This document shows positions 2,766 to 30,303 of a stretch of 39,364 bases of DNA, one piece after another. The DNA lies in NCBI GenBank assembly GCA_002104895.1, contig MCFG01000511.1, positions 1-39,364 of the forward strand, given 5' to 3'. Below the pieces are notes generated by a model. It was not told where the DNA came from. It did not search any database and saw only the letters and a list, made by a program, of their open reading frames with translations. The stretch comes from Anaeromyces robustus (Eukaryota > Neocallimastigomycota > Neocallimastigomycetes > Neocallimastigales > Neocallimastigaceae). The translations under genes were made by a program, and so were the position numbers. Numbering within the stretch: position 1 is the stretch's first letter; every line of letters starts with the position of its first letter.

Positions 2766-3337
2766 TGTAACGAACTTAGTGAGAAATTCACTAGGTTGTT
2801 GTAGTATTTCAATAATTAAAATAAAATAAACAAACAAAATAAACAACACAATATTAAAACATAATGTTTATGGATTTATTTTGTATTTTATTTAATATTT
2901 AAATATTTAATATTTTTCTTATTAATAATGACTCCAAGAGTAAAAATAATATTAATACATTTCTTTTATATTCAAGACTTATTCTAAATCATTACGTGAT
3001 TGGTTTACTTATTTAAATAACAAAATATTTAATTATTTAACTATTACTATAATTAAGTGAATACATAATTAGTATCTAAATAAAATCGTATTTATATCTA
3101 AGTGAACGAATAACTAATATCTAAATAAATCTAACTAAGTGAATGAATAATTATAGACTAAATAATTCTATTAATAAAATAAGTAAATGAACAAATGTAT
3201 TAATAACTAAATAAATGAATAATTTTCCAAATCAAAAAGGTAAAAGTAGGATTCGAACCAGTGATATCTATGATAAAGGTAGAAGTAGTTACCGTTGAGC
3301 CACGAAGTTCCTTAATGTCGTTGTTGATACCGTTACA
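2766..3337 (-). repeat. LTR-B, 5' LTR of the TRIM-like element
   Basis: 572 bp, starting TGTAACGGTATC on the minus strand. The tRNA-like module has its A box at 3292-3302 and B box at 3249-3259 (minus strand). TATAAAAG on the minus strand (2966-2959) lies 31 bp before 2935, the proposed RNA start. The 11 bases 2935-2925 are complementary to the primer site just inside the LTR. Confidence 0.85.
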
Positions 3338-7239: not shown

Positions 7240-7956
7240 TGTAACGAATCCCTCAATTAGTAAAATAGTAACCATGGTCTAGTGGTTAGTAACTATGACC
7301 ATCTGGGCGAACACTCTGGGTTCGACTCACACCTTGTTCCAAATTTTATAAAAATTTTATTTTAAATTTATTTATTATAAATTTCTGTATTTTATTCTGT
7401 ATTTGTTTCTGTATTTTATTTCTGTATTTCTTTATAGAATTAAATGGAATAAAATTAGAAACTTTAAGAAAAAATTATATAATATTTCTTTATTTTTCTA
7501 TGAGATTCATTTTATATCAAAATATCTTAGTTTCTAGCAATTTTTTATTATTTTTATGAACTTTTATTTTTAAAAAACTATGTTTCCGCAAAAAGTATAA
7601 ATAGGTGTAAAACTTTTAGTTAAAATATTTTTCTTTGTGCTTTTATTCTTTTATAACTTTATATATATTAGTAATAATTAATTCATAAGTAGTTTGAAAT
7701 ACTACAAAGATTAGTTATTATTAATTTTTAATAATTAATAAAACTAAATTCTAATAAAACATATTTTAAATAAAAATAAAATAAAACTTAAAACTAAATC
7801 TTACTAATATATATATCTCGACACCGACCTTTCAGGTTAACAAAGGAAAGGTGTTCTGATATTGCAATAAGTATCTTTTATTTTAAATTTTATTTTGTTT
7901 GTGTTTACCTCAGATTTTGGTGTCAATTGTAATATTGGAACTACCGTTCCGTTACA
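7240..7956 (+). repeat. LTR-A, 5' LTR
   Basis: TGTAACGAATCCC to CCGTTACA. The tRNA-like module is near the start (A box 7275-7285, B box 7319-7329). TATAAATAG at 7596-7604 lies about 41 bp before GTGCTTTTAT (7637-7646), the proposed RNA start. Confidence 0.9.
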
Positions 7957-7966: not shown

Positions 7967-8773
7967 CCAACAAAAGAAACACCGCCTGGAACCTTAGTGT
8001 CGAAAATTTTGGAATCTGCTACCAATTTTTAGTTTCTACCTTTTATTGGATTCTACCGCCTTTTAGAACTACCTTTGGATATTACTTCCTTTAGTCTTAA
8101 TCTTAGAATATTACTTTTCTTAGTCTCTGGATACTACCTGTTCTAGTAATAATCTCCTAATCCCTTGAATACTTCTATCCTAGTTTTTGATTACCAGTTA
8201 TCTACCTTGTATAATCCTTAGTTTTTAGTCTTGTCTTAGTCTTGTCTACTTCTTGTTTACCCTTTGTCTACTTTTCTTGAATAATTCTAGTATCCATCCT
8301 ATCAAGTATCCTTCTCGAATAAAAATTTTTCTTGATAAAGTAAAAAAAATAAAGCACCCAGATTCCACCCGTCCTTAGTTTAACCAAGTTCTTAGAACTA
8401 CCGCCTAGTTTCTCTCCTTAGTCTTGGCCACTTTACTTTGAATTGCCTTTGAACTACTTAGAAACCTTAGTTATTGGAAATTTTGTACCACTCTAGAATA
8501 GTTAAAAAATTTTCCTTGTGTAACATTTTGAAAAATTTTCCTTGTACTACCCGAAGATAAAAATAGTGTACCCCATAGCATTTGAAAAAGATTTTGTACT
8601 ACCTTGCCAGTGATATTTTCGGAAAATTAATAAAATTAAATTAAAAAAATTAAATAAATTAAATTAAGTGAATGAATATTAATAAATTAAATAAATTAAT
8701 ATAAAAAAATAAGTGAATGAATAAATTATAGAATAGATAAATTAAATTATTTTTCAAAAAAATTTTTTCTAGT

Positions 8774-8812
<39 letters not shown>

Positions 8813-9551
8813 TATTTATAAACTTAATAAAATTTTTAATAAGGAGAATCATTCTGAGGATCCTTATTTTTATACTGTCTTTTTTCTTTTATAATTAAAT
8901 TTCAAGTTTCACATTGGCCCTCGCTGGTAGGCTCAGACGTAAGTCCTACATTCAGCTCGAGTAAGTTGATAAACTGAAAGAACAGCAGTGTGAAATAGAA
9001 AAAATTATTAAAAGAAAAACATCTTTGTAAACTTCTGTGTAATTAAATATCTATTAAACTCTTAAGGTAAATTATTTGTAAAATATACTAGGAGCGTTTA
9101 GAGCTCATATACAGAGTGTTTGGCGTAAGTAACTAGTTTCTAGTAGGTTAAGAAACTATAGTCAATTAGTTACTTAGGTATTGATAAAAGTGGGTAGTGT
9201 GAAAAGCACGCTTTCTTGGGGGAAGGAATTGTTGTGTGATAAAAAGCACTGCAATATCGGACGTTCAAGTTCAATACCTTCGTAAGCTCTGGCAAATAAG
9301 GAACTTCAGTCACCGAAGGCTGGAGGTTGGTCGTGAAGGTGAAGCGACTTTAATTATATAGTTTTAATATTTATTTCGAGGTCTAGTATATACCTCTAGT
9401 TAGTAGCTTTTGCCGGTTTATTTTTAAAGTTGTAAGGCATAAAAAGCGAAATTAAAATTTAAATTTACCTTAATAAACAATTTGAATTCCAAGTCGAGAC
9501 CAATAATAAACTAATCAAACAAAAATGAACGAAGATAATTTCTTAATTTAA
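7967..9551 (+). other. Long structured 5' leader of the LTR-A element
   Basis: There is no ORF of note over 1.5 kb. The first part (about 8030-8600) is rich in degenerate CTACC/CTTAG pyrimidine repeats. A 34-A tract occupies 8775-8808. From about 8915 the sequence is less A/T-rich and forms hairpins, for example GTAGG/CCTAC near 8930-8952 and the conserved block at 9290-9440 that recurs at 19250-19410. A short ORF, ATG at 9525, stops at TAA 9549-9551 immediately before the gag ATG and in the same frame. Confidence 0.6.
9290..9440 (+). ncRNA. Conserved leader RNA structure, copy 1
   Basis: Three hairpins are shared with 19250-19410: 9304-9309/9320-9325 (loop TCACCGAAGG), 9330-9334/9344-9348 and 9378-9382/9392-9396. 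Several base differences between copies keep pairing. It is probably a packaging or translation element of the retrotransposon RNA; the function is inferred only from position and structure. Confidence 0.5.
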
Positions 9552-11476
9552 ATGTTACTGTACAAAGATGGATTCGCTGGAGACCGTCGTTTCTTTAAAG
9601 GCTTCCTTGCAAAAATGAACCTTGTCTTCATGTTGCAACCAGAAAAATTTTCTGAAGATCCAGTTAAGGTTGCATACATCATTTCCAGACTTTACGGTTC
9701 TGCTATGAATTGGGCCGCAACTTTAATTGAAAATGTAGACCCATGTTTAGACGACTATGAAGCGTTTATATCCAAGTTTAAAGCTACCTTTGGAAATTAT
9801 GATTCAACCTTCATAGCAAACCAAAAGCTCAGAACCATTAAACAGAGACGTCTTGGAGATGTAAGAAGCTACATCCTGGAGTTCAATAAATACGCAGATG
9901 ACTCTTCTTGGAATGAAGCTGCTAAAATGGATGCTTTTCTCGCAGGATTAAACGACAATATTGCAACCAGAATCTTAGAAATGTTTCCTGGACCACAATC
10001 CTTATTCTCTCTTCAAACCATAGCTTCTCGTATAGATTTAAGACTTTCTACGCATAATCAATATTTTAAATCAAATAATTCAAGTAATCATTCTTTTGGC
10101 CGTCATGCTAACTCTTTTCAATTTTCCTCAAGTAAATCTAATGAAACAATAACTCGTGAAGAAAAAGAAAGAAGAAGAAAAGAACATCTTTGTTTCTACT
10201 GTGGATCAAAAAATCATCAAGTTAATAATTGCCCTTTAAAGAATAAAGTGAATGAAGATGACAATAAACCCTCTTCCAGCAATGCTTTTATTTCCAATCC
10301 AGAATCCAAACCAAAACCAAGACCTAGACTTTCTGATGATCCATCTTTGAATGCTCCAGTTGCCGAATTCAATCTACAAACTTTAAACTCTTCTTGCAAT
10401 GCTAAACTACTCATAGATTCAGGTTCTCAATTAAATCTTATGGATATACACTTTGCTAAAGAAAACAATATTCCTTTCGACTCAGATTCCACTTTTCCTG
10501 CCGTTTCTGGAGTAGCCGGAAATCAAACAATTTTTGGTAAAACTTATCCCATCTCGTTGAAATATAAAAATCACCTTTGTAAAACAGAATTCTATATTGT
10601 GGATCTACCTTCGTATTGTGGTATTCTTGGAATAGATTGGCTCGTAACTCACAATCCCACTATCAATTTTACAACTAAAGAAATAACTTTCAATTCAAAT
10701 TACTGTCTTTCAAATTGTTTAATACTCCCAAATTCATTCGTGACGAATTCTCAAAATACAAAATCTGATAAATCTTGTAAACCTCATTCTAAAAATAATA
10801 ATAATCTTGATAATCACTCTGGCAATAAATCTTTCTGTAATACTTCTTGTTTCCACTCAGAACGTACAAAATCAATTAATTCACAACCTTTGAAAAATAA
10901 TAATAAACCAACTTATGTTTCTAACTCTTGTGTACTTCCTAGAAAAAATTCTTGTAATAATCCTGTTAATCTTAGTACAAATTCTTGTAATCCTGTTAAC
11001 TCTAGTAATTCTCCTTGTAACTCTGTTAATCTTAGTAACGATTCTTTTAATAATAATTCTTGTAATAATCTGAAATCTGGTAATCAATCTGTTTCCTCGG
11101 CAATCCTAATTCTTGCTCAAAATCAAATTCTTCAAATCAACCTATTCAAAATATTAATTTTTCAAAACCCAATAATCCAATCTTTTCGAAGGAGAGTGTG
11201 AATGATAAAAATAAATCAAATTCATATTTTTATTCAAAATCAAATAAATATTCTACATGTCAAAATTTTTTCTTAGCAAATTCAAAAGAAATTATTAACA
11301 ACTCTTCATACTTTGTAATCTGTAATTCAAAATCAATTAAATACAAAAGAAAACAAAACAACAAATTTAAAGAATTTAAACTTGATGCATACCTCCCTTA
11401 TGAAGATAAACCACCTGAAAATTACTTTGTTACTTTGTTAAAAATAAATCAAAATGAAAAAGAAAAACTTAAATAA
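9552..11476 (+). pseudogene. Ty3-type Gag-protease, one frameshift
   Basis: The ORF opens at ATG 9552 and runs to TGA at 11199-11201 (549 residues). The upstream ATG at 9525 is in the same frame but separated by one TAA, which may be a nonsense change in the original N-terminus. Gag (about residues 10-170) resembles the Gag of the complete element at 20710. A CCHC knuckle lies at about 213-227 (CFYCGSKNHQVNNC). A retropepsin-like domain has LLIDSGSQLNL near residue 286 and GILGIDWL near 357. The tail is a low-complexity Asn/Ser/Cys-rich repeat. A one-base shift near 11097 moves the reading into another frame that stays open to TAA 11474-11476, so the original protein was about 640 residues. 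No Pol domains follow. Confidence 0.8.
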
Positions 11477-11771
11477 TGAATCTCAACTATTAATCTTATT
11501 TTATCAATATTTTATTAATATCAAACTTATTATTATTATTAGTTTAAATCTTAGTTTAGTTTAGCTTAGTTTAGCTTATTATTATTATTAATATCATGTA
11601 AACTTTATTAATATTCATGTATTTTATTAATATTCATGTATTTTTATTAATATCAAATTATATTATTTTTACACCTATATAGTATAGTTTAAAATTTAGT
11701 TAAAATTTTTCTTAGTATAGTTTAGCCTAGTTTTAAGATTCGTCTGGTATCCGAATCCTGAAGGAGGACCA
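11477..11771 (+). other. Non-coding 3' end of the LTR-A element
   Basis: Short TTAGTTTAGCTTAG-type direct repeats and A/T runs end in the purine tract GAAGGAGGA directly before the 3' LTR. Confidence 0.5.
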
Positions 11772-12486
11772 TGTAACGAATCCCTCAATTAGTAAAATAG
11801 TAACCATGGTCTAGTGGTTAGTAACTATGACCATCTGGGCGAACACTCTGGGTTCGACTCACACCTTGTTCCAAATTTTATAAAAATTTTATTTTAAATT
11901 TATTTATTATAAATTTCTGTATTTTATTCTGTATTTGTTTCTGTATTTTATTTCTGTATTTCTTTATAGAATTACATGGAATAAAATTAGAAACTTTAAG
12001 AAAAAATTATATAATATTTCTTTATTTTTCTATGAGATTCATTTTATATCAAAATATCTTAGTCTCTAGCAATTTTTTATTATTTTTATGAACTTTTATT
12101 TTTAAAACTATTTTTCCGCAAAAAGTATAAATAGGTGTAAAATCTTTAGTTAAAATATTTTTCTTTGTGCTTTTATTCTTTTATAACTTTATATATATTA
12201 GTAATAATTAATTCATAAGTAGTTTGAAATACTACAAAGATTAGTTATTATTAATTTTTAATAATTAATAAAACTAAATTCTAATAAAACATATTTTAAA
12301 TAAAAATAAAATAAAACTTAAAACTAAATCTTACTAATATATATATCTCGACACCGACCTTTCAGGTTAACAAAGGAAAGGTGTTCTGATATTGCAATAA
12401 GTATCTTTTATTTTAAATTTTATTTTGTTTGTGTTTACTTCAGATTTTGGTGTCAATTGTAATATTGGAACTACCGTTCCGTTACA
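11772..12486 (+). repeat. LTR-A, 3' LTR
   Basis: 715 bp, TGTAACGAATCCC to CCGTTACA. A box 11807-11817, B box 11851-11861. Its last base is adjacent to the open frame of the Rep-associated ORF at 12487. Confidence 0.9.
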
Positions 12487-13005
12487 GTGATAAGTATTCC
12501 TAGTAGTTTTAGTGTTAACACGGATGATATTGGTCGTATTGATGATGATCAATATTTTGAAAATATAAGAAGACGAAGAGTTGTAGAGTATAATAGAAGA
12601 TACGGGAATATTAAAAATATTAAAGTTAACGAAGAGGATGTATTGTTTGATTTGTATAGATATAAAAATAGAAATTCTGTTACTATAAATAAATTTGTGT
12701 TATATTATGATAAAAAGAAGAATTCAATTGGAATAAAATATAATAGAAGAATACAGACAAATAGTTTTATTAGAGCTATAATGCAGTATAATAATATAGA
12801 GCCAGTGTTTGAAAAACGAAGATATTTTGTTTTAAATGTTTTTGAAGATCCACCGTTTAATTTTAGAAATTGGGATGTTAAGATATATAATGATAGTAAT
12901 AATATAATAAATAGTTTTGACTATAATTATAATGATGCTAATGATAGAAGGGATAAATATGTAGTTATACCGGATATAAGAATACCAAGAAGATTTAGAG
13001 AATAG
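12487..13005 (+). CDS. Unrecognised ORF of the CRESS block, 5'-truncated; capsid position
   Basis: About 172 codons ending in TAG at 13003-13005. The frame is open from within the LTR (stop near 12460) but has no ATG before about codon 93, so the authentic start was lost at the LTR junction. The protein is rich in Asn, Asp, Arg and aromatic residues, with an Arg cluster (ENIRRRRVVEYNRR) near residues 25-38 and a basic C-terminus (IRIPRRFRE). It is divergent in position and strand to Rep, where ambisense CRESS genomes carry the capsid gene. I see no motif that proves a capsid; this is inference from layout only. Confidence 0.5.
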   Translation: MISIPSSFSVNTDDIGRIDDDQYFENIRRRRVVEYNRRYGNIKNIKVNEEDVLFDLYRYKNRNSVTINKFVLYYDKKKNSIGIKYNRRIQTNSFIRAIMQYNNIEPVFEKRRYFVLNVFEDPPFNFRNWDVKIYNDSNNIINSFDYNYNDANDRRDKYVVIPDIRIPRRFRE

Positions 13006-13285
13006 TAAAAATTAGTGTTTGATTAGAATTTATGTGTTTAAATTCGCTAGTCATGATAATAAACCTATTGCATGACAGCCTACTATAATAAACTAAAGTG
13101 TCAATCTTGAGATCCAACGTGATGTTGGATTGATAGTGAAGACAAATTATCATCAAACCCCCTAATTAAACAACACAAAAATTGAAAAAAAATAAATGTA
13201 AATAATTAATTATGTATAATAGAAAAATTTATTAATTTTTAAATAAAAATTACAAGATTAAAAACTATTAATACATGTGTTATAT
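13006..13285. other. Convergent intergenic region of the CRESS block
   Basis: Two hairpins lie downstream of the plus ORF: GTCATG/CATGAC (13050-13055/13071-13076) and ATCCAAC/GTTGGAT (13112-13118/13124-13130, loop GTGAT). These could be terminators for converging transcripts. I found no standard nonanucleotide in a stem-loop here. Confidence 0.45.
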
Positions 13286-13590
13286 TTAGTTAATATTATT
13301 ATCAATATTTCTATCTATTTTATCTATTAAGTGTTTAATTTTTTTATTATTTTGAACAATTAAATGTTCAATTTTATTATTATAATTTTCTATTTGTACT
13401 AAATAATTATTTTTTTTATTAGTTAAATGAACAACTTCGTGATTATTTATTTCCCTTTGTTCTAAAACTTCTGATATTTGGATAATAATATCAGTTAAGC
13501 TGTCGAACTTTTCTTTATTGTTTGAGAAAATTTCATCTTTTCCACAGACAATAGTAGAAATAAAATTATAAGCTTCGTTTAAAATTGTAG
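13286..13590 (-). pseudogene. Displaced C-terminus of the second minus-strand CRESS ORF
   Basis: A minus frame runs open from about 13590 to TAA at 13286-13288 (about 98 codons, no useful ATG). It overlaps the end of the ORF at 13579 in another frame, and together they read as one protein broken by a one-base shift near 13580-13595. This part is rich in Asn, Lys, Ile and Glu with heptad-like spacing, a likely coiled coil continuing that of the upstream part. Confidence 0.5.
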
Positions 13591-14019
13591 CTTTAAAGTT
13601 AATTTAGAATTATCAATATTCAAATTGTTAATTCTTTTATTTTGTAAATCAATTAATTGATTTAAACCAGTAATAATTTTTTTGAAGAGAATGTAATTAT
13701 CAAAATCGATTTTATTTTCAAAATCGAAATGAAATTCACAATAGTTAACTTGTATATTTTCATCAGAAGTAGTAGTTTCTTGACTATAATTATTTATAAT
13801 ATTGTCGAAATATTCAGGAGTTTTAAGTTCAAAATCTTCAGTATAAATAAACTGCGGGCTAACAGGAGGAGAATCAATTAATCGAATAGAAGAAGTGTCC
13901 TCAACAGTAAGAGAAGAATTAGAGTTTTTTAATTTTTCAAAGTTTCTTTCATCGATTAAAGCTAAGAGTTTTGTTCTTCGTTCTTTTTTTTGAGTGAGTC
14001 TTTGAGTTAACTTGTTCAT
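13579..14019 (-). CDS. Unrecognised CRESS-block protein with coiled-coil C-terminus
   Basis: The ATG start is at 14019 (the frame also extends to a TTG at 14028, not used by eukaryotes); the stop is TAA at 13579-13581, giving 146 residues. The N-terminus is basic (TQRLTQKKERR); the middle is Ser/Thr/Asp-rich with a PPVSP stretch; the last about 35 residues look like a coiled coil. It starts 72 bases after the Rep stop, on the same strand, with a strong hairpin between them. The stop is probably premature: coding-like sequence continues in another frame to 13286. No family is recognised. Confidence 0.55.
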   Translation of the reverse strand: MNKLTQRLTQKKERRTKLLALIDERNFEKLKNSNSSLTVEDTSSIRLIDSPPVSPQFIYTEDFELKTPEYFDNIINNYSQETTTSDENIQVNYCEFHFDFENKIDFDNYILFKKIITGLNQLIDLQNKRINNLNIDNSKLTLKLQF

Positions 14020-14062
14020 ACGTATCAAAGTATTTTGTTAATCTATCTTCTCTGGGCCATTC

Positions 14063-14114
14063 AAAGAAAGAACCAAAATGACTAAGCTGGGTTAGTCATT
14101 TTGGTTCTTTCTTT
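14063..14114. terminator. Perfect 23-bp hairpin at the 3' end of Rep
   Basis: Arms 14063-14085 and 14092-14114 are perfect inverted complements around the 6-base loop GCTGGG. The right arm contains the last codons and stop of Rep; the left arm repeats them in inverted orientation. It could act as a transcription terminator or nicking structure, or mark an inverted-duplication junction. The role is not known. Confidence 0.6.
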
Positions 14115-15027
14115 TGAGAGGTTGGTAAGTTTCTTCTATAATAGAGCCATCGTCTTTAGAGAATAATTTTTTTAGTGAGTAATTACTAGTCATAATTACC
14201 CACCAGGGGCGTATATTATTAATTGTGGCACCTTTTACCTCTACTGGAAAAGGGTACTGATCACATAATTGTTTTAATAAATTACCAGAATGGCAAACCC
14301 AAGATAGTTCAAGTTCTTCAATTACAACAATCTTTTCTCCATTATAAGAATCCCACCATTTGTTACATTTTTTGTTATAAACTAATAGTGGTGAGTATTC
14401 AATATTTTTTTGAGAACAGTATTGGAACCAAAATTGTTGTAGATGGTAGACAAGATCTTCGATACAGTAGGATTTGCCAGTACCAGTAGGACCCCAAATA
14501 AGAATAAAAAAATCTTGAAAAAAGTTTCCGAATTGGTTGTTTAATAGCATATTTTCAGTTTTCAGGTTTTCGACGTGTATTTTTTTTAATTTGTTGTCGT
14601 ATTTTAGATAGATTTCTGGATCAATTTGATTGAACAAACCCTTTTTAGCTAATGCTACGGCATCCAAATATTTTTTGTTATTAGTGTTAGTGATTGGACT
14701 ACCATCAGTGTTAAAATTGGCTTCTCTGGAAGGCCAGAACCAACAATTGTCGGATTTTGAACAATATCTGGCATTAGCTAAATATTGTTTTTTTTGGCAT
14801 TCTAAATGAATGCCAGGGATATTAATTTTATTTTTGATAGTAGTGAGTCTTATTCTATTTCTGGTTTGGAAACAACTTTGCAGATGTTGAGTTCCAGATT
14901 CACCAATTTCGTAACCGAACATTAAACGGGAATATTCAGTTTCAGCAAACTGTTTAATTTGTTTAACGTTGGATTCGGTGTAATTATTTAAAGTAAATGT
15001 GAAATAAGTTGTTTGATAATGGTGCAT
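14092..15027 (-). CDS. rep: CRESS-DNA Rep (HUH endonuclease plus superfamily 3 helicase)
   Basis: 311 residues, uninterrupted. In this family Rep nicks the origin, joins covalently to DNA through a tyrosine and unwinds it for rolling-circle replication. HUH motifs: I FTLNNY (11-16), II HLQ (48-50), III YCSK with the catalytic Tyr at 88. Helicase motifs: Walker A GPTGTGKS (179-186), Walker B VVIEEL (234-239), motif C IMTSN (278-282). The motif set is circovirus-like rather than geminivirus-like, and the length is normal for such Reps. ATG at 15027 is directly preceded in frame by TAA, which supports this start. The first few codons overlap sequence that reads as copia on the other strand, so the extreme N-terminus may be foreign. 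Residues needed for activity appear present; expression is unknown. Confidence 0.92.
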   Translation of the reverse strand: MHHYQTTYFTFTLNNYTESNVKQIKQFAETEYSRLMFGYEIGESGTQHLQSCFQTRNRIRLTTIKNKINIPGIHLECQKKQYLANARYCSKSDNCWFWPSREANFNTDGSPITNTNNKKYLDAVALAKKGLFNQIDPEIYLKYDNKLKKIHVENLKTENMLLNNQFGNFFQDFFILIWGPTGTGKSYCIEDLVYHLQQFWFQYCSQKNIEYSPLLVYNKKCNKWWDSYNGEKIVVIEELELSWVCHSGNLLKQLCDQYPFPVEVKGATINNIRPWWVIMTSNYSLKKLFSKDDGSIIEETYQPLKRKNQND

Positions 15028-15690
15028 TTACCACAGGAATCAATTCACAAGGAAAAGAATATACACTTCACTCAAATAAGTCCAAAGTTTACAAAGTATG
15101 GACTTCAAAATATAATATAAATTTTAAAAATAAAAACTCCAACATAGTGTGCGACAGTCTGGATAAGGCAACAAAGGATTCAGACATGGACTTGTGGCAA
15201 AGAAGACTTGGTCACTTCAACATTGACCATCTTAGAGAAAAATTAAAAAACATTTAAGTCACAAATGTAAAATATGTGCCTGTTCTAAATTAAGGAATCT
15301 ACCGTTCTACCTAGCCAAAAACAAGACAAAAGAAACGTTCGAATTAATACATATGGATCTCGTTTCTGCACCGGATATCTCTATCTATTGGAACAAATAT
15401 TTTTTAACTATAATGGATGATTACTCTCGTTACGGGTGGATATATTTCATTAAATCAAAAGTAGATGTTTACAATACTTTTATCATATGGTTTAATAAAA
15501 TTAGAAATATATATATTAAAAATATCAAGTTTATAAAAAACGGACAACGGTACCGAATTTTTCAATAATAAATTTAACAAATTTTACGAAGAAAATGGAA
15601 TAGTACATGAAAGCACTGTTCCATACAACACTCAACAAAACGGAAGAATTGAAAGGCTCCAGGGTACACTCATAGCGAACACCGATGCCA
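15009..15690 (+). pseudogene. Copia-2 fragment: pre-integrase and integrase core
   Basis: Reads GAG-pre-integrase (LWQRRLGHFN near 15193-15222), then a CKICAC zinc pair in a shifted frame. The integrase core follows: HMDLVSAPD (about 15350), IMDDYSRYGWIYF, a frame-shifted DNGTEF at about 15540, and QQNGRIERLQ near 15635-15664. At least two frameshifts (about 15255, about 15540) are present. The left end abuts the Rep start, the right end stops near 15690; protease, reverse transcriptase and LTRs are missing. Confidence 0.8.
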
Positions 15691-15991
15691 AATAATTATA
15701 CTAGTAAAAATAAAAAAAAAATTTAAAAATATAAAATATTAAAATAATTAATTAAAAAGATTTTAATTAAAAATAAAAAAAGTAATAATAAAAAGTACAC
15801 AAATAAATAAATAATAAACCTAACAAAAACAAAATTAAGTAAAATAATTTACAAACAACAAAACAAGACAAAACAAAACATAAATAAAAAATAAGAATAA
15901 ACAAAAAAAAATATAAACAAAAAAAATAATAATAAACAAAAAAAATATAAACAAAAAAAAAAAAAAAAAAAAAGAAATAATATAAATAAAA
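15691..15991. other. A-rich leader upstream of a gag ORF
   Basis: Almost pure A with scattered T, C and G and several A8-A21 runs (the longest is 15953-15973). It directly precedes the gag ATG at 15992, as poly-A tracts do in the other Ty3-type leaders of the window. There is no coding capacity on the plus strand; the minus frame is only Phe/Tyr low complexity. Confidence 0.5.
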
Positions 15992-17216
15992 ATGGATTAT
16001 AATATTATAAATGTTCTTCCACATATTAAAGATGTGGACAAAAGGACAAATGAGAAATGGTTTGAAGACTTCCAAAACCTCATGGAGCTAGAGAATATTA
16101 AAGATTCCGAAAAACAGTTCAGACTTTGCTTCTGAAGGTGAGGCAAGGGAAATACTAAGTAACATTATGGGTGATAGTTTAGAGTTCCCATCCTTAGTTG
16201 AAGTTAAAGAATCCCTACTTAATGCGCATTCCTTAACTAGGATGGAGACTTATGACAAACTTAAGGCGATGGTGTAAAGATATTATGCGCCACATTATAA
16301 TATCTTTAATTGCGAATTCAGCCACTTTACAAGTAACTGAATTACAAAAAATATTTCTGTAAAATTATTGTGAAACAATAATTTAAATCAATTAAATAAA
16401 GTTCAAAACAAAATAAATTATTAATTTATTTTGTGAAATATTAATTTTTTCACTTTTAGTTTATGAAATTTTCCATTGTTTTTAAATTCAAAATATATAA
16501 TAAATATAGTATTAATATTAAAATAATAAATAAATAATAAAGAGAATAAATTCAAATAAAATAGTATTTAGTTTAAATTAGTAATTTTAGTTTACTAAAT
16601 TTAGTTATAGTTTATATTTTATTAATAAATAAAATTTATTAAAATAGTTTTATATAGAAATATATTATAAATAAATAGGAAAAATATATTATATTATAAA
16701 TAATAAAAAATATAAATAGTCAAGAAAATTTTATGTAATTTGGAAAAAATGTAATTGTTATTAATTTATATTTTTTAATTCTTAAAAAAAATTAATAAAA
16801 CATATATTTTAATAAAACAAATTTTTATTAGCGTATATTTTTAATTTTTGTGTTAGTGTTTCTTATTTGTTGTTGTAATCTATTTTCATCAATCTTTTAC
16901 AGATGGTGATACAAGAGGACCAGAATATCACCGATTTCAACAAGGCCTATTAGAGTTATATGAAGATGTTAGTTCCGACTTAAAGGAGGAAATAAGAGTT
17001 AGTGACTACCTGAAAGCTATAGAGCCCAGAAGAGAAGCTTGCCATGCCGTTCTATATGATGAAGCTACCACCATCAAAGATGCTTGCAAGTCTGCCGAAA
17101 AAATTCAGAGACTTATGGAATTCGAGAAGGAATGCTATAATAATGAAAATATTCTTCACAGACTGCCGCCCTTTATTTCTGGCCATAAATCTTATAACGA
17201 CGGCCACCGACTATAA
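15992..17216 (+). pseudogene. Retrotransposon Gag, frameshifted and split by a solo LTR
   Basis: ATG 15992 opens a Gag-like frame (MDYNIINVLPHIKD). It runs into TGA near 16132 and continues in another frame after a one-base shift near 16125. The solo LTR at 16273-16901 interrupts it, and coding resumes after it (EDQNITDFNKAYLELYEDV, then a Lys/Glu-rich helical stretch) to TAA 17214-17216. It looks like the Retrotrans_gag type of capsid domain. No knuckle, protease or Pol is seen. It could be the gag of the LTR-D element, whose copies lie on both sides (6050-7025 and 17222-18275). Confidence 0.65.
16273..16901 (+). repeat. Solo LTR-C, TSD GATGG
   Basis: 629 bp from TGTAAAGATATTATGCGCC to CTTTTACA, flanked by GATGG at 16268-16272 and 16902-16906. 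It is clearly related to, but more diverged than, the 639-bp LTRs of the complete Ty3 element. It keeps the GTAATTGTTAT self-priming site near 16750. Confidence 0.9.
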
Positions 17217-17221
17217 GAACA

Positions 17222-18275
17222 ATATATTCTTATAATAAATAAATTTTATTAATATCTTATATAAATTCAATATTAAATAAATCTTATTAATATCTTATAA
17301 TAAATAAATTTTATTAATATCTTATATAAATTCAATATTAAATAAATCTTATTAATATCTTATAATAAATTCTATATCTTTATTAATATTTTAAATAAAT
17401 CTTATTAATATTTTATAATAAACTTTATATATATAATAAATAATATTTTAAATAATTTTACTAATATTTTATAATAATTATTTTTATCAATATCAAATAT
17501 TTTATAATACTTTATTAATATATCTTATTTATATTCTTATAACAATAATTGTTAATATTTCTATTATTAATCTTTAATAAATTTAATACTTTAATATAAT
17601 TATAATAATAAATATTTATAATAATAAATATAAATAATTATAATTAAATAATAATATTATCTATTCTTTTCCATTTTTCCCTTATTCTTTCATTCCAACT
17701 TAAAAACCCTAGACAAATACAGAAATAAATATTCTGTATATTATTTTAAATAAAATAAAATAAATTAGAATAATAAAAATTAATTATAAAATAAATGAAT
17801 TAAATATAAAATGTTTAATACAGAAGTTAAATGTATTTCTGTATAAAAGTATAATATTTATTTTTAATTTTATTTAAAACACTAAATAGATTAATAAAAT
17901 ATTTAATAATTAGAATAAAATCAATAAATAATAACAATAATAATTAATATTAAAATAAATCTTAGAAAATAATATTAAAAATAGTGAATTATATTATAAA
18001 ATAAATAATAATAATTAGATTAATTAATTAAATAAATAAGAATAATAATAGTCAAAAGACTATAATAATAAAAATTCATGTATTATAAAAGGAGGATAAT
18101 TTTTCTTTCTTTTATATAACAATCAATAATTTATATTTAAAAATAAGAATAATAAATAAAGATAATATTAAAAGCAAAGATTATTTTATTTTTAATCTTA
18201 TTGTATCCTTGTAATAATTATTTTATTATAAAATTTATATAATTATTGTTTATGAATATACTATTTCCTGCATCA
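17222..18275 (+). repeat. Long A/T-rich repeat, copy 2 (LTR-D)
   Basis: Partner of 6050-7025. Same landmarks and same CTGCATCA end at 18275. The left part contains an extra internal duplication of about 100 bp (TTAATATCTTATATAAATTC block). Possibly the right LTR of the same element as copy 1. Confidence 0.6.
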
Positions 18276-18627
18276 TTTTTAATAAAAAATGAACAATTAA
18301 TCTTAATTTCATTAAAATTACTAGATTCTTTGTGGCTTGTAGAACTTTCCTACATTCTATATTAAAATGAAAATTTCCAATATATATTATAAATATAAAT
18401 TTATTAATATTAAATTATATTATTAATATAAATATTCCATATATATTACTAAAAATCAATATAACCATTATTAATATCAATTTAAATATATATATTATTA
18501 TTAATACCAAATATTTTATTATTAATATCAAAACAAAAATTATTAATTTCAATATAAAAATTATTAAAAATTATAAATTTATTGTTAATATCAAGCCAAC
18601 TTTTATTAATATCACTTATAATATTAT
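18276..18627. other. A/T-rich spacer, nothing recognised
   Basis: TAT/ATT-rich sequence, no ORF over 30 codons and no repeat partner noticed. It ends in the target of the solo LTR-B (ATTAT at 18623-18627). Confidence 0.4.
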
Positions 18628-19196
18628 TGTAACGGTATCAACAACGACATTAAGGAACTTCGTGGCTTAACGGTAACTACTTCTGCCTTTATCATAGATA
18701 TCACTGGTTCGAATCCTACTTTTACCTTTTTGATTTGGAAAATTATTCATTTATTTAGTTATTAATACATTTGTTCATTTACTTATTTTATTAATAGAAT
18801 TATTTAGTCTATAATTATTCATTCACTTAGTTAGATTTATTTAGATATTAGTTATTCGTTCACTTAGATATAAATACGATTTTATTTAGATACTAATTAT
18901 GTATTCACTTAATTATAGTAATAGTTAAATAATTAAATATTTTGTTATTCAAATAAGTAAACCAATCATGTAATGATTTAGAATAAGTCTTGAATATAAA
19001 AGAAATGTATTAATATTATTTTTACTCTTTGAGTCATTATTAATAAGAAAAATATTAAATATTTAAATATTAAATAAAATACAAAATAAATCCATAAACA
19101 TTATGTTTTAATATTGTGTTATTTATTTTGTTTGTTTATTTTATTTTAATTATTGAAATACAACAACCTAGTGAATTTCTCACTAAGTTCGTTACA
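18628..19196 (+). repeat. Solo LTR-B, TSD ATTAT
   Basis: 569 bp, TGTAACGGTATC to GTTCGTTACA, the same family as the TRIM LTRs but on the plus strand. ATTAT at 18623-18627 and 19197-19201. tRNA-like module: A box TGGCTTAACGG (18663-18673), B box GGTTCGAATCC (18706-18716). Confidence 0.9.
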
Positions 19197-19201
19197 ATTA
19201 T

Positions 19202-19628
19202 TAATAAAACGCACACGATACTCTTTGGAAGGTTATTACTTCGATAATACTCTGACGAATAACGAACTACAGTCACCGAAGGCTGTAGGTCGGTCGTGAA
19301 GGTAAAACGACTTAAAATTATTTTTTTTATTTTCTTGCGAGGTCTCGTATATGTCTCTTGTTAGTAGCTTTTGCCAGTTTATTTTTTTTTGTTGTAAGGC
19401 TATAAAAACGAACTTTTATTATATTTACTAAAAAAAAAAAAAAAAAAAAAAAGAAGTATTAATTCTAATTATATATAAATTAAAATTTTTTTTGGGTAAT
19501 TAATTCAAAAAAAATTTTTTTTTATTAAGATTTCCGGGTTAAGTTTAACTTGCATAGTAATTGGGCTAGCAAGCTCTGTACTGCTATATTTTAAATCGAA
19601 TATAATAACCGTGGCGCAAGAATGGAAT
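19202..19628 (+). other. Leader remnant of another Ty3-type element
   Basis: Contains the conserved structured block (19250-19410) and a 23-A tract (19430-19452), the layout of the LTR-A leader. A short open frame reaches 19628 and resumes at 26114 after the complete Ty3 element (TVAQEWNDIIQEI), so the target of that insertion was itself a retroelement leader or gag start. Confidence 0.5.
19250..19410 (+). ncRNA. Conserved leader RNA structure, copy 2
   Basis: The hairpins match those of copy 1: 19267-19272/19283-19288, 19293-19297/19307-19311 and 19339-19343/19353-19357. In the first stem a U-G pair of copy 1 is an A-U pair here, with both bases changed. In the second a U-G pair is a U-A pair. 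Confidence 0.5.
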
Positions 19629-20267
19629 TGGAAAGATATTATACGCCACATTATAATATCTTTAATTTTAAATTCAGCCACTTTTCAAGTAACTGAATTA
19701 CAAAAAATATTTCTGTAAAATTATTGTGAAACAATAATTTAAATCAATTAAATAAAGTTCAAAACAAAATAAATTATTAATTTATTTTGTGAAATATTAA
19801 TTTTTTCACTTTTAATTTATAAAATTTTTCATTGTTTTTAAATTTAAAATATATAATAAAATATATTATTAATATTAGAATAATAAATAAATAATAAATG
19901 AACTCAATTGAAATTATTTAGTCTTAGTTTAAATAGTTAATTTAAAATTTCCATTTTTAGAAATAATAAATAAATTTATTAAATAATAAAGTTTAGTTAG
20001 TTAGATAGCCCGTAAATAAATAGAAATTAAATATAAATAAATTAGTATAATATATAATAAATATAATTATAAAAAAAATATAAAAATACTTCAAAATTTC
20101 TTAAATTTTGAAAGGTGTAATTGTTATTATTTTAAATTTTTTAATTTTCAGAAAATTAATAAAACATATATTTTAACAAAATATATTTTTATTAGAATAT
20201 TTTTTTTAATTTTCGTGTTAGTGTTTTTAAATTGTTGTTGTAATCTATTTTTTAACAATCCTTTACA
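19629..20267 (+). repeat. LTR-C, 5' LTR
   Basis: 639 bp, TGGAAAGATATT (TGT in the 3' copy) to CCTTTACA. TATAAAAAT at 20079-20087 lies 38 bp before GTAATTGTTAT (20117-20127), the proposed RNA start, giving a U3 of about 488 bp and an R-U5 of 151 bp. Confidence 0.95.
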
Positions 20268-20278
20268 ATAACAATTAC
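20268..20278 (+). promoter_or_regulatory. Self-primer binding site of the complete Ty3 element
   Basis: ATAACAATTAC, the first 11 bases inside the LTR, is the exact complement of LTR bases 20117-20127. Eleven bases is the length described for Tf1 of fission yeast, where the 5' end of the RNA primes its own reverse transcription. Confidence 0.7.
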
Positions 20279-20483
20279 CTTTGATTTTAAAAAAAAAAAT
20301 ACGTTACAACAACCAGTCCAGAAGCTACTAGTTAGAATACTACCAGTTAGAAAACTACCAGTTAGAAAACTACCAGTTAGAAAACTACCAGTTAGAAAGC
20401 TACCAGTCCAGAAGCTGCCAGTTAGAATATAACTTGTTCAAGAAACTGCCTTGCTACTAGTAAAAGTACGTGGTTTGGAAGAC

Positions 20484-20529
<46 letters not shown>

Positions 20530-20709
20530 TTTTTATTTATTTATTATTTAAGAAAACTCGACCGACACCCATTGCAATCGGGATAGCGTCCTGGTCGACT
20601 TTTCATAAAATATAATAAATAAGTTAGTTAAGTCAATTCATACAAAGTGTCAGACTTAATTATTATTAATAGTATTTTGGAGAATCTCTCATTAGAAGAA
20701 CGAAGCAAT
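20279..20709 (+). other. 5' leader of the complete Ty3 element
   Basis: Tandem 15-base repeats (ACTACCAGTTAGAAA and variants, about 20330-20440) are followed by a 40-A tract (20487-20526). A hairpin with CGACC/GGTCG ends (about 20558-20600) follows, then the gag start. The frame is open from 20647 but the first ATG is at 20710. Confidence 0.6.
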
Positions 20710-23700
20710 ATGGGAGAACAACACAATCAACATTTCAAATTAGTAAACGAACCCCCTATTTTCACAGGGAAGCACGGAGATTTAGATGGATTCCTAACTC
20801 GAGCAGAATTAACAATGGAATCCAATCCAGAACGGTTCAGGGAAGATGAAAATAAAATCAGATTCCTCATGTCGTATATGTTTGGAAAAGCTTTAGAATG
20901 GGCCTCAGTGTTAAGAAGAAACAACAGCCCATTGCTTAACGACTACCATGAATTTGTTAGGGAACTCCGATCAAATTTCGGAGACTACACTACAGAAGCA
21001 GTGGTAGCGAATGAGAGATTATGCAACCTCAGACAAAAGCGCTTCGGATATGTTTTTGAGTATATAACCGAATTTCAGAGAATCGGTCAGAGCTCAAATT
21101 TTAATGAAAGCGCTAAAATTCATATGTTTATTAGAGGTTTAAAACAGCAATTGAGGGAAAAGATTGCTGTAGTAGATCCAAATCCCAATTCCCTAGAAAG
21201 ACTGTTTAGAACTGTTGTAACAGTCGAAAATTTGATTAAAAGAAATGATACGTTGGAAACGTATTATCAACATCAAACAGGTAATGATCCTATGGACATT
21301 GACCTGTATCGAATAAGAAAAAATCCAAGGACCTCCCAGTATTATCAGCCGTATAAAAATCCATACAGAGAAGAGACTAAAACTTTTGAAGAAGAAAGGA
21401 AGAAAGGAGTTTGTTTCTACTGTAAACAAAAAGGACACATGAGGTTCAACTGCCCGAATAAGAAAAGACCGAAACAAATGAAAATAATTAAGAGAACCTT
21501 ACGCGAGAAAGGAATTGAACCTGGTGCTACCGTGGGTTTACATAAATCAAACTTAAAAAAGGCTACTGTAGAAGAAGAAAGGAATAACGTGATTGACTTT
21601 TATATTAGTACTAATGAGGTGAACGAACACAAAGCTAGGGTACTCATTGATTCTGGGGCAGACCTTAATTTTATTCACCCAGAATTTGCTAAATTAATCG
21701 GTATTAATATAAATCAAATAAAGGAACCTTTTGGAGTGTCTGGGTTAGGCTATGGAATTTCCAAGGTTAAAAAAGAAACAGAAAAATGTATTTTAAGAAA
21801 AAGAAACCACTATGAACTTATTAAATTTTATGTCCTTCGAATCCCTGATGTCGATATCATTTTAGGTTTACCTTGGATCGAAAAGCACTGCCCCTCAAAC
21901 TACCACGATAATAAGAAATTAGCTTTCAGTTCTGGTTTCTGTGCACGTTTCTGCAATTATGGAAAGAGAAAAAGAAACTCAAAGAAAGAAAAGAAACCAG
22001 TTATCAAAATTATATCAAGAAAAGGAAAAGAACCTGCTGAAGATGAAGGTGAGAGGAATGAGGTTAAGAAGACGTTTAAGGAAGAACCCTCTATTTCAAA
22101 AGCTAACTGGTCTATTGAAGACGAAGAAGAGAGAGAAGAATATTTCAAAGGAAGATTAGTTCGTACAATCAATGATAGTGATGTTGACTATGAAAGTGAT
22201 GTTAATGATAGTTTTATGTTTGATAGTAATAGCGATAGTACTAGTGATATTGATAGCATTAATGATAGTATTAGTGACAGTAAAATTAGTGAAGAAATTA
22301 GTGATAGTAATAATAACGATTTTAGTAATAAAAAAGATAAAAATAAATGTAATAATGATTCTTGTAATGAAAATTCATGTATTAAAAAAGAAAGTAAAAT
22401 ATCTTATGCATGTAGAGTTATTAAAAAATTAAATATTATAAATAAAGATGAAAAAATGGTCACTGTACCATCACAATATATTGATTTTATTGATGTGTTT
22501 AATGAACAAAATTGTAAGAAATTGCCTCCACATCGTGATTACGATTGTGAAATAAAATTAAAAGAAAATAGTAGTTTGTTTTACGGACCACTATATTCTT
22601 TAAATGAAATTGAAAGAGAGGAATTAAAAAGATATTTAAAAGAGAATTTAGAAAAAGGGTTTATTAGAAAATCTACTTCTCCTGCTGGAGCACCTATTCT
22701 TTTCGTTAAAAAAAAGGATGGTTCTTTACGTTTGTGTGTTGATTATAGAAAACTTAATGAAATGACCATCCGCAATTCATATCCTCTTCCTTTAATCAGT
22801 GACTTATTAGATAGAGTCAAAGGAGCCAAAATATTTACTAAATTAGACTTAAAATCTGCATATAATTTAGTAAGAATCAAAGAAGGAGATGAATTCAAAA
22901 CTGCATTTCGTACTCGTTATGGTCATTATGAATATTTAGTAATGCCTTTCGGGTTAAAAAATGCTCCAGCTACATTTCAACATTTTATAAATGATGTTTT
23001 AAGTGATTATCTTGATGAATTCGTAATCTCTTATATTGATGATATCCTCATATACTCTAAGAATATTAAAGAACATCATACTCATGTAACAAAGGTATTA
23101 ATTAAATTGTTAGAAAATAATTTATACTTAAACTTGGAAAAGTGTGAATTTGATGTAGAAGAAACAACCTTTCTTGGATATGTAATTTCTAGACGTGGTT
23201 TAGAAATGGATAAAGAAAAGGTAAAAGCAGTTTTAGATTGGCCTGTTCCAAAAAATGTCAAAGAGATACAATCATTTATTGGATTATGCAATTACTACCG
23301 TATTTTTATTAAAGACTTTGCAAAAATTGCTAATCCATTACACAAACTTACAAGAAAAAATGTTCCTTATAATTGGAGTGATGAACAACAAAATGCTTTT
23401 GATACTTTAAAAAATCTCTTTACCTCTGCTCCAATTTTAAAACACCCTGATAGTAATCAACAATTCATTGTTGAAACCGATGCAAGTAATTTTGCTGTTG
23501 GAGCAATTCTTTCTCAAGAATTCGATGGAAAGTTACATCCCATTGCATTTCTTTCGAAAAGCCTCAATCAAGCTCAAAGAAACTACCCAATTTATGATAA
23601 AGAATTACTTGCTATCAAGACTGCTTTAGAAGAATGGCGTCATTACTTAGAAGGCGCTCGACAACGGTTTATTATTTATACTGATCACAAAAATCTCACA

Positions 23701-25437: not shown

Positions 25438-25469
25438 TCTCGCAGGAGCTCGACTTTAAAGAGAGAGAT

Positions 25470-26108
25470 TGTAAAGATATTATACGCCACATTATAATAT
25501 CTTTAATTTTAAATTCAGCCACTTTTCAAGTAACTGAATTACAAAAAATATTTCTGTAAAATTATTGTGAAACAATAATTTAAATCAATTAAATAAAGTT
25601 CAAAACAAAATAAATTATTAATTTATTTTGTGAAATATTAATTTTTTCACTTTTAATTTATAAAATTTTTCATTGTTTTTAAATTTAAAATATATAATAA
25701 AATATATTATTAATATTAGAATAATAAATAAATAATAAATGAACTCAATTGAAATTATTTAGTCTTAGTTTAAATAGTTAATTTAAAATTTCCATTTTTA
25801 GAAATAATAAATAAATTTATTAAATAATAAAGTTTAGTTAGTTAGATAGCCCGTAAATAAATAGAAATTAAATATAAATAAATTAGTATAATATATAATA
25901 AATATAATTATAAAAAAAATATAAAAATACTTCAAAATTTCTTAAATTTTGAAAGGTGTAATTGTTATTATTTTAAATTTTTTAATTTTCAGAAAATTAA
26001 TAAAACATATATTTTAACAAAATATATTTTTATTAGAATATTTTTTTTAATTTTCGTGTTAGTGTTTTTAAATTGTTGTTGTAATCTATTTTTTAACAAT
26101 CCTTTACA
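25470..26108 (+). repeat. LTR-C, 3' LTR
   Basis: 639 bp, TGTAAAGATATT to CCTTTACA, preceded by the purine tract AAAGAGAGAGA. Followed by the target duplication GGAAT. Confidence 0.95.
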
Positions 26109-29631: not shown

Positions 29632-30303
29632 TTATTGAGAAATATCCATATCGTTTGAATTATTTGAATTTGAATTTATTTTATCTTCATTTTGGTCATT
29701 TTCATTTATTTCCATTTCATTATCATTTTTTATATCAGTTGTACCTCCATATGACATTTGGGTATCTTTATTTAAAGAATCATCATTGGATGCTTTTGTA
29801 TTAGAAAAAATTGTATCTAAATCAGGGTTTTCAATTTTTACCTTCAATGGATCAATAAGATTTTTTGATTTTATATTACTTTCGAAATGAGTCATCATAT
29901 CTACAGGCAAATTATTATCCACACCATTAGTTGAAACACATGAAGTAACTAATAATACCTTTTCTATAGCACGTAGATATTTCCATACACTTTTGTGTTG
30001 ATCCTTTGATACTGTTGTAAGTTCACATAATCTTTGAATTGTGAAAGGTGGTTCATCAAATGAGTCTAATATTGACCATATACGTTGTTGAAAATCTTCT
30101 ACTGATTCACCATTAATAATTTGATTACTTGAATTATCATTTAATTTTTGTTCACATAATTGTTTAATTTTAAACCTCAAAATTTCACGTAATAAATTCC
30201 AATTGCAAACAATTTCCGCCGTAGTTGAAGTTTTAAGTAAATAATCTTCATAAATTTGATTCCATTGCTTAATATCTATTTCTTGTAAATTTTCTTCTGT
30301 CAT
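29632..30303 (-). CDS. Protein phosphatase 4 regulatory subunit 2 (PPP4R2-like)
   Basis: 223 residues, single exon, ATG at 30303 and TAA at 29632-29634. The PPP4R2 family binds the PP4 catalytic subunit and, with subunit 3, directs it to targets in DNA-damage recovery and centrosome or spindle functions. The family signature is the N-terminal helical region: WNLLREILRFKIKQL (about 35-49), PPFTIQRLCEL (about 80-90) and VWKYLRAIEKVLLVTS (about 100-116). The last about 80 residues are acidic and Asn/Asp-rich low complexity, usual for this family. The gene is divergent from PRL across 1.2 kb of A/T-rich DNA. The family call is by pattern, without a search. Confidence 0.8.
   Translation of the reverse strand: MTEENLQEIDIKQWNQIYEDYLLKTSTTAEIVCNWNLLREILRFKIKQLCEQKLNDNSSNQIINGESVEDFQQRIWSILDSFDEPPFTIQRLCELTTVSKDQHKSVWKYLRAIEKVLLVTSCVSTNGVDNNLPVDMMTHFESNIKSKNLIDPLKVKIENPDLDTIFSNTKASNDDSLNKDTQMSYGGTTDIKNDNEMEINENDQNEDKINSNSNNSNDMDISQ

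What the first reader, a model, noticed from the sequence alone, without database searches (positions are those of the whole stretch)
14092..15027. Intact CRESS-DNA Rep gene inside a retrotransposon nest of a fungus-like genome
Seen: 311 uninterrupted codons with all HUH motifs (FTLNNY, HLQ, YCSK) and the SF3 helicase motifs (GPTGTGKS, VVIEEL, IMTSN). Almost every neighbouring element is frameshifted. Known: endogenous CRESS Reps occur in several eukaryotes, including Entamoeba and Giardia lineages. Inference: the integration is recent, or the gene is kept by selection, or it belongs to a replicon still active in this host. The circovirus-like motif set with two unrecognised partner ORFs suggests an undescribed lineage.
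Basis: partly seen in the sequence, partly recalled or inferred. Interest (0 to 1): 0.88.

Follow-up and report, generated by a model that had tools for sequence, protein, structure and literature searches.

The report
Broken viral relic in gut fungus
A gut-dwelling fungus carries scrambled leftovers of small circular DNA viruses in its genome, including this replication gene that looks whole but is damaged at both ends, and together they point to an apparently undescribed group of viruses of such fungi.

Summary
The 311-codon CRESS Rep ORF is real (minus strand) with the motifs claimed, in a contig of Anaeromyces robustus, an anaerobic gut fungus. It is not an intact gene. Its ATG comes from the antisense of a fused capsid-gene scrap (15020-15057), and a palindrome with 23-bp arms (14063-14114) puts a stop after the helicase core. 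The two 'partner ORFs' are broken virus pieces: 13579-14028 is Rep's own severed C-terminal region; 12487-13005 is the C-terminal half of a viral protein that elsewhere has PPxY motifs. The block has no origin nonamer and ends in an LTR on one side and a Copia fragment on the other.

The genome holds seven further Rep copies and a weak eighth. Three have a circovirus-type origin (TAGTATTAC in a stem-loop upstream of Rep); one keeps Rep and a circovirus-like Cap divergent. The seven Reps in the tree fall with 14 unnamed metagenomic Reps in a strongly supported group, marked by a roughly 20-residue helicase insertion. On C130, Cap lies beside a fibre-like repeat protein and the PPxY protein. Best reading: repeated endogenisation of an apparently undescribed circovirus-like lineage of gut fungi; this copy is a rearranged fossil, not an active replicon, and its open frame does not require selection.

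The parts
11771..12486 (+). 3' LTR of a Ty3-type element (5' LTR 7240-7956, gag ORF 9552-11201) whose end is the left border of the viral block
   Evidence: Window self-BLAST; 6 mismatches in 715 aligned bases between the two LTRs, flanks AAAAC / GTGAT, no target-site duplication
12487..13005 (+). C-terminal part (from about residue 140 of a 314-aa ORF) of a viral protein that in relatives has PPRY and PPPY motifs; N-terminal part missing
   Evidence: tblastn with the C130 ORF, 70% identity; alignment A3; PPxY motifs in relatives
13006..13240 (.). Non-coding region between the two convergent genes; its first 120-150 bases are 95-100% identical (per 60-nt bin) to three C130 copies
   Evidence: DNA fold of 13006-13180 z = -3.1
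13319..13582 (-). End of Rep's C-terminal extension, in another reading frame
   Evidence: tblastn with the C130 Rep C-terminal ORF, 69% identity
13588..14062 (-).
   Evidence: tblastn with the C249 ORF, in which helicase and extension are one open frame: window 14550-13588, 53% identity
14063..14114 (.). Perfect palindrome, arms of 23 bp with a 6-base loop; the Rep ORF's stop codon lies in it
14092..15027 (-). Open Rep fragment: HUH nuclease and SF3 helicase core through motif C, 28 residues after TSNY
15020..15057 (+). Scrap of the Cap gene (reads GAFTTGINSQGK) fused to the Rep 5' end; its antisense supplies Rep's ATG and nearly all of the next two codons
   Evidence: 38-bp block with 2 mismatches to the C130 Cap DNA
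15053..15690 (+). Copia retrotransposon fragment, right border of the block
   Evidence: 83-84% identity to copies on C645 and C94, match begins at 15053

Best explanation
The block 12487 to about 15055 is a rearranged endogenous fragment of a circovirus-like CRESS DNA virus that infected an ancestor of Anaeromyces robustus. Shown: it carries part of a PPxY-protein gene, an intergenic region, Rep in convergent orientation and a scrap of Cap; the Rep ORF lacks its own start and its C-terminal region; other loci of the genome hold pieces of related viruses, some with Cap and origin. Inferred: the living virus nicked its TAGTATTAC origin with Rep, replicated by rolling circle and packaged with a circovirus-like Cap; its DNA was captured by host end joining in several fragments, and a retrotransposon later landed in it. 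The ORF is open because the virus kept it under purifying selection beforehand and too few mutations have hit it since, not because the fungus uses it.
For: Rep domains. Nine further Rep hits in the genome: eight on C625 (three), C222, C249, C388 (two) and C130, a weak ninth on C632. Cap scrap at the Rep start. Palindrome at the stop. After TSNY, 15 of 18 group members counted have 89-264 residues; the other three are this ORF (28), C222 (29) and C388b (36); three further Anaeromyces Reps were not in that count. Origin stem-loop with TAGTATTAC upstream of Rep at C222, C388 and C130; no nonamer in the 39-kb window. Cap and Rep divergent in C222. Group of 21 of 61 Reps, support 100/99, in which the 7 Anaeromyces rows need at least 4 changes. 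Purifying pattern between copies: C222 vs C625b 37 synonymous and 7 non-synonymous differences, dN/dS 0.04; window vs C625a 0.14. Named A. robustus proteins lie on contigs with the lengths of five contigs here.
Against: No exogenous relative could be fetched: scans of IMG/VR and of GTDB genomes confirmed none, so the living virus is inferred; the metagenomic Reps may themselves come from fungal genomes. No reads were available to test the junctions. The database model P0002 (419 aa) seems to bridge the break by a predicted intron; if that splicing is real, a fusion protein without motif C could be made. The missing TSD leaves the order of events at the left border unsettled. One C130 stretch has Rep and Cap in the same orientation, which does not fit the inferred ambisense order.
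Confidence: 0.87

Rival explanations
1. The Rep ORF is a domesticated host gene, kept by selection after integration.
For: Open over 311 codons; low dN/dS against other copies (0.14 vs C625a, 0.18 vs C222); annotated as a gene; if the insertion is old (5% divergence) an open frame is unlikely under neutrality (0.02-0.06).
Against: Low dN/dS is as expected if the copies diverged as viruses; the start codon is a capsid scrap and the C-terminal region is cut off; at 0.55-1.1% divergence an open frame has probability 0.42-0.73 under neutrality.
Confidence: 0.06
2. It is part of a replicon still active as an episome or a transposon.
For: Several copies in the genome; nuclease and helicase motifs present.
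Against: No origin nonamer in the window; among the 25 longest of 71 inverted pairs in 8000-20000 no arms frame the block; the copies are 44-78% identical to the query rather than near-identical as in a recent burst; the borders are the end of an LTR and the inside of a Copia element.
Confidence: 0.03
3. Assembly chimera of contaminating viral DNA.
For: Virus-like DNA at several places; no reads examined; window and C249 both adjoin members of one Ty3-type family (94% identical).
Against: Related pieces lie in contigs of 17-123 kb, with different ends and different breaks, and the Rep copies are only 44-78% identical to this one; a contaminating virus would be expected as intact, near-identical contigs.
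Confidence: 0.04

Closest known systems
Circoviridae (circovirus, cyclovirus)
   Same: HUH plus SF3 Rep; TAGTATTAC origin hairpin; Rep and Cap divergent (C222); Cap with arginine-rich N-terminus and a weak Circo_capsid match
   Different: Rep of 370-540 aa in 15 group members, with a roughly 20-residue insertion between Walker A and the KWW motif; C-terminal extension; extra genes beside Cap (fibre-like, PPxY); gene total well above 1.7-2.1 kb if all lie on one circle; fungal host
Endogenous CRESS elements of Entamoeba and Giardia (Naryaviridae, Nenyaviridae, Vilyaviridae; PMC7493932, passages seen)
   Same: CRESS virus DNA integrated in the genome of a gut eukaryote, with metagenomic relatives
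Fungal endogenous geminivirus-like Reps (Liu 2011, PMC3198968, passages seen) and Genomoviridae mycoviruses
   Same: CRESS-derived DNA in fungal genomes
   Different: That survey reported geminivirus-like Rep domains in ascomycetes and one basidiomycete; here the Rep is circovirus-type, with Cap and origin, in an anaerobic gut fungus
Lake Sarah-associated circular virus-38 (nearest named virus among the 120 listed hits)
   Same: Rep homologous over 95% of the query
   Different: Only 32% identity; outside the group in the tree

Membership tests
CRESS DNA virus Rep | HUH endonuclease plus SF3 helicase domains in one protein | tested here: met
   Pfam PF02407 and PF00910 over cut-off; PDB Rep profile match
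Endogenous viral element | Viral DNA flanked by host DNA on both sides | tested here: met
   LTR left, Copia right, host-type genes (PPP4R2-like, a phosphatase) further along the contig; no reads available
Circoviridae | TAGTATTAC at a stem-loop between divergent rep and cap | tested here: met
   Met in full only at C222; the hairpin is also upstream of Rep at C388 and C130. Not met in the window itself, which has no nonamer
Circoviridae | Circovirus capsid family match over the curated cut-off | tested here: not met
   C222 Cap 23.1 bits against a cut-off of 36.2, E 1e-4; best PDB sequence hit E 0.6
Circoviridae | Genome of about 1.7-2.1 kb with two main genes | tested here: inconclusive
   Rep, Cap, fibre-like and PPxY genes sum to about 5 kb, but one circle was not seen; size range from a passage of PMC12819777
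Circoviridae | Rep inside the family's clade | not tested
   No reference Reps of the family were placed; the tree holds only hits of the Rep search
Genomoviridae / geminivirus-like fungal Reps | Gemini_AL1-type Rep catalytic domain | tested here: not met
   Window Rep matches PF02407, not PF00799; the genome's single PF00799 match is another element on C130
Naryaviridae, Nenyaviridae, Vilyaviridae | Rep within those clades | not tested
   No reference sequences of these families among the proteins in hand
CRESS-like or Helitron-like transposon | Terminal inverted repeats or constant ends across copies | tested here: not met
   No arms framing the block among the 25 longest of 71 inverted pairs; copies have different ends

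The most novel reading that the evidence does not exclude
A family of unusually large (about 5-7 kb), multi-gene, circovirus-like DNA viruses infects anaerobic gut fungi. Besides Rep and Cap it codes for a fibre-like protein made of repeats otherwise seen in metagenomic, bacterial-looking proteins, and for a PPxY protein, which would mean a eukaryotic ssDNA virus that borrowed a bacterial-style adhesin in the gut.
Probability: 0.45. Interest if true: 0.82.

Novelty: new variant of a known kind. Interest (0 to 1): 0.6.

Why it matters
No DNA virus of anaerobic gut fungi turned up in the listings of my paper searches (open-access library only). A 2021 review of ruminal phages knew of one study of rumen mycoviruses, mostly Partitiviridae, Alphaflexiviridae and Betaflexiviridae (PMC8692978, passages seen). 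These fungi are important breakers of plant fibre in herbivores, so a DNA virus group that infects them would be a missing part of rumen ecology. The fossils suggest a host for hostless metagenomic CRESS Reps, and the fibre-like and PPxY genes next to Cap would extend what CRESS viruses are known to encode.

Tried and rejected
IMG/VR scans with the Rep and with the 19-member Rep alignment: 4 and 137 pattern matches, none confirmed. GTDB genome scan: 590 pattern matches, none confirmed. Phage collection with the Rep and with two fibre proteins: no match, so the phage-fibre resemblance that I recalled is not shown. PHROGs: only weak matches. Structure models of the 172-aa ORF and of the fibre protein were poor (mean pLDDT 37.4 and 36.9) and were not searched. 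Linking Rep P0019 and fibre P0154 by equal contig length (7350): with 18 Rep and 116 fibre contig lengths (of 120 listed fibre hits; 4 fungal ones left out) shifted lengths gave at least one match in 18% of 600 offsets, so it is only a hint. The tandem Rep pair on C388 (period 1768, equal to the contig length of P0008) was considered as a Rep-only circle and set aside, because the origin hairpin is absent between the two copies and their synonymous sites are saturated. That MULE transposases near three Rep loci carry them was not tested.

Full report
What the window is. The window is contig C459 of a 70.17-Mb, 769-contig genome. Named proteins of Anaeromyces robustus sit on contigs of the same lengths as five contigs here (39364, 87362, 17666, 51216, 82281), so the organism is that anaerobic gut fungus. 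One mismatch: the proteins of the C130 loci are listed on a contig of 117802 bases, while C130 here has 112500; I have no explanation beyond another assembly version. The contig has host-type genes (PPP4R2-like 29632-30303, a protein phosphatase 31513-32034) and many retroelements, one with an open 1596-aa Ty3 polyprotein.

Observation. The ORF 14092-15027 is on the minus strand, 311 codons, with the claimed motifs and the Viral_Rep and SF3 helicase domains. It is a CRESS Rep.

It is not an intact gene. (a) Start: the + strand at 15020-15057 is a scrap of the Cap gene, 38 bp with 2 mismatches to the Cap on C130, reading GAFTTGINSQGK. The Rep ORF's ATG (15025-15027) and nearly all of the next two codons are the antisense of that scrap. 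DNA similarity to the C625 Rep ends at 15014. (b) End: the stop lies in a perfect palindrome of 23-bp arms, 14063-14114. Beyond it the same frame continues with sequence that in C249 is one open frame with the helicase (window 14550-13588, 53% identity); a second break follows near 13585, after which 13582-13319 continues in another frame. Residues after TSNY: window 28, C222 29, C388b 36; the other 15 of the 18 group members counted 89-264, median 161 (C625a, C625b and C130 were not in that count); of 40 Reps outside the group 29 could be measured, median 31, range 24-161, so the extension is typical of the group but not unique to it. (c) The 172-aa ORF 12487-13005 is the C-terminal part of a protein on C130 (70% identity from residue 140 of a 314-aa ORF), which has PPRY and PPPY motifs in the part missing here.

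Borders. Left: the block starts at the base after an LTR (11771-12486) of a Ty3-type element whose two LTRs differ at 6 of 715 sites. That element has no target-site duplication, whereas a solo copy at 1219-1934 has one (ACAAA), so the left side has been rearranged. The Rep fragment on C249 adjoins a member of the same element family (94% over 1183 columns). Right: a Copia fragment from 15053; with the C645 copy and the 1.5 kb upstream of it as query, the other half of that Copia was not found in the window (only low-complexity matches).

Other copies. Nine further Rep hits in the genome: C625 (three pieces of two copies), C222, C249, C388 (two in tandem), C130, C632 (weak). The Viral_Rep family search gives 7 matches, all over cut-off. 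Cap relatives: 7 hits including the query, on C222, C114, C233, C130 (two), C146 (two). C222 keeps Cap (330 aa) and Rep (310 aa) divergent, 695 bases apart; no fibre, PPxY or Rep-C-terminal match was found in the C222 stretches beside them that I searched. On C130 one stretch has broken Rep, broken Cap, a 480-aa fibre-like protein and the PPxY protein in one orientation; a second has broken Cap, fibre and PPxY; a third has fibre and PPxY. In C249 the fibre gene adjoins the Rep C-terminal region. From C222 (Rep and Cap divergent) and the window (PPxY gene and Rep convergent) I infer an ambisense virus with Rep on one strand and Cap, fibre and PPxY genes on the other. The C130 stretch with Rep and Cap in the same orientation does not fit this and may be a composite.

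Origin. Of 12 stretches scanned (some overlapping, about 140 kb in all), TAGTATTAC occurs once each in L011, L013, L014 and L033 and nowhere else, the window included. That number is what chance gives (0.33 expected per 10 kb). The evidence is the place: in the first three it lies in the loop of a 13-16-bp stem with at most one mismatch, 200-230 bases upstream of Rep, with CCGTAGCA words nearby (1, 2 and 2; the window has one such word, reversed, inside the Rep ORF). The L033 copy is not in such a hairpin. In C625 the viral DNA begins, by eye, at the loop of this hairpin, as one would expect if Rep-nicked linear DNA was captured; one case only.

Relatives. Of 239 protein hits, 120 were listed. 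In a tree of 61 Reps (7 Anaeromyces, 54 hits; midpoint root) 21 rows, all 7 Anaeromyces and 14 metagenomic, form one side of a branch with support 100/99; the Anaeromyces rows need at least 4 changes, so several virus lineages were probably captured, unless the metagenomic rows are fungal fossils too. The spacing from Walker A to the KWW motif is 36-40 in 18 of 18 group members counted and 16-22 in the 35 of 40 others where it could be measured. Contigs behind the 14 metagenomic members: 11 are 4.2-7.4 kb, 3 are 1.7-2.0 kb; whether they are circular or pieces of fungal genomes is unknown. The nearest named virus is Lake Sarah-associated circular virus-38, 32%. The tree contains no reference members of named families, so family-level placement is open.

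Selection and age. Ten comparisons between copies: C222 vs C625b 37 synonymous and 7 non-synonymous differences over 302 codons (0.04); window vs C625a 0.14; window vs C222 0.18; C388a vs C130 0.11; C388a vs C388b and both comparisons with C249 saturated at synonymous sites; PPxY gene window vs C130a 0.47, window vs C130b 0.27, C130a vs C130b 0.28. Low ratios between deeply diverged copies mean, most simply, that they evolved as working viruses before capture. 6-8% of single substitutions in this ORF make a stop; with 0.55% divergence the chance of none is 0.65-0.73, with 1.1% 0.42-0.53, with 5% 0.02-0.06. The LTR pair gives only a lower bound on age. So the open frame speaks against great age under neutrality, and does not by itself speak for selection.

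The extra genes. The fibre-like protein has repeats of the kind LTVTSNGTQTI..GYDGLSSV. 447 proteins matched among the 8000 candidates scored, 120 listed; apart from A. robustus the only named organism is Orpinomyces (P0131). Of the 120, 36 carry Pfam accessions, 18 of them PF03382 and 8 PF13306 (bacterial-type domains as I recall them). P0132, on a 6053-base contig, also resembles its N-terminal part, by eye. No phage record matched. The PPxY protein had three hits: two in A. robustus and one unnamed copy on a 1945-base contig, identical to C130. Structure models were too poor to use.

Unexplained. The 120-150 non-coding bases after the PPxY gene are 95-100% identical per 60-nt bin between the window and three C130 copies, while the coding bins up to 12966 are 68-95%; window 13006-13180 folds better than all 200 shuffles (z -3.1). 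A shared cis element kept by selection or by exchange between viruses would explain it.

Literature. Liu 2011 (PMC3198968; passages seen) reported fungal endogenous Reps as geminivirus-like, in ascomycetes and a basidiomycete. Kinsella 2020 (PMC7493932; passages seen) tied three CRESS families to Entamoeba and Giardia by the same kind of fossil. A yak faecal survey (PMC12819777; passages seen) gives 1.7-2.1 kb and TAGTATTAC for circoviruses. A review of ruminal phages (PMC8692978; passages seen) knew of one rumen mycovirus study. Searches that paired gut-fungus names with CRESS terms, endogenous viral elements or mycoviruses listed nothing on DNA viruses of these fungi (listings, with passages of two papers opened); CRESS viruses and rumen gave 4 papers, none on gut fungi by title. 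The library is open-access only, so absence from print is not shown. UniProt already labels several of these proteins as Rep-like.

Verdict. A real but broken relic; the wider set of relics points to an apparently undescribed circovirus-like lineage that infected gut fungi repeatedly.

Noticed in passing
L032:3427-6837 (C130:37427-40837): A second CRESS-type element: a Gemini_AL1-type Rep (410 aa, E 7.9e-10) with three neighbouring ORFs of 172, 170 and 176 aa without Pfam matches; the only PF00799 match found in the genome.
   Followed up: partly
window 13006-13160: Non-coding stretch nearly identical in four loci although the neighbouring coding DNA has diverged; folds well as single-stranded DNA.
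   Followed up: partly
L058:1053-4173 (C114:112553-115673): Open 339-aa Cap followed in the same orientation by ORFs of 320, 88 and 174 aa: another relic with extra genes beside Cap; none of the Rep hits lies on C114.
   Followed up: partly
L010 near 3005-3010 (C625): Viral DNA starts, by eye, within the loop of the origin hairpin, joined to an AT-rich ORF that reads like a retroelement.
   Followed up: no
L009:5769-7217, L011:798-1316, L013:2132-3558: Transposase-like ORFs (FLYWCH and MULE domains in the L009 one; the other two similar by eye) lie within a few kb of three Rep loci; chance or not was not tested.
   Followed up: no
window 19627-26108: Ty3-type element with LTRs 99.8% identical and an open 1596-aa polyprotein with chromodomain: a young element.
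   Followed up: no
protein P0131 (Orpinomyces): A fibre-like repeat protein of the same kind in a second anaerobic gut fungus.
   Followed up: no
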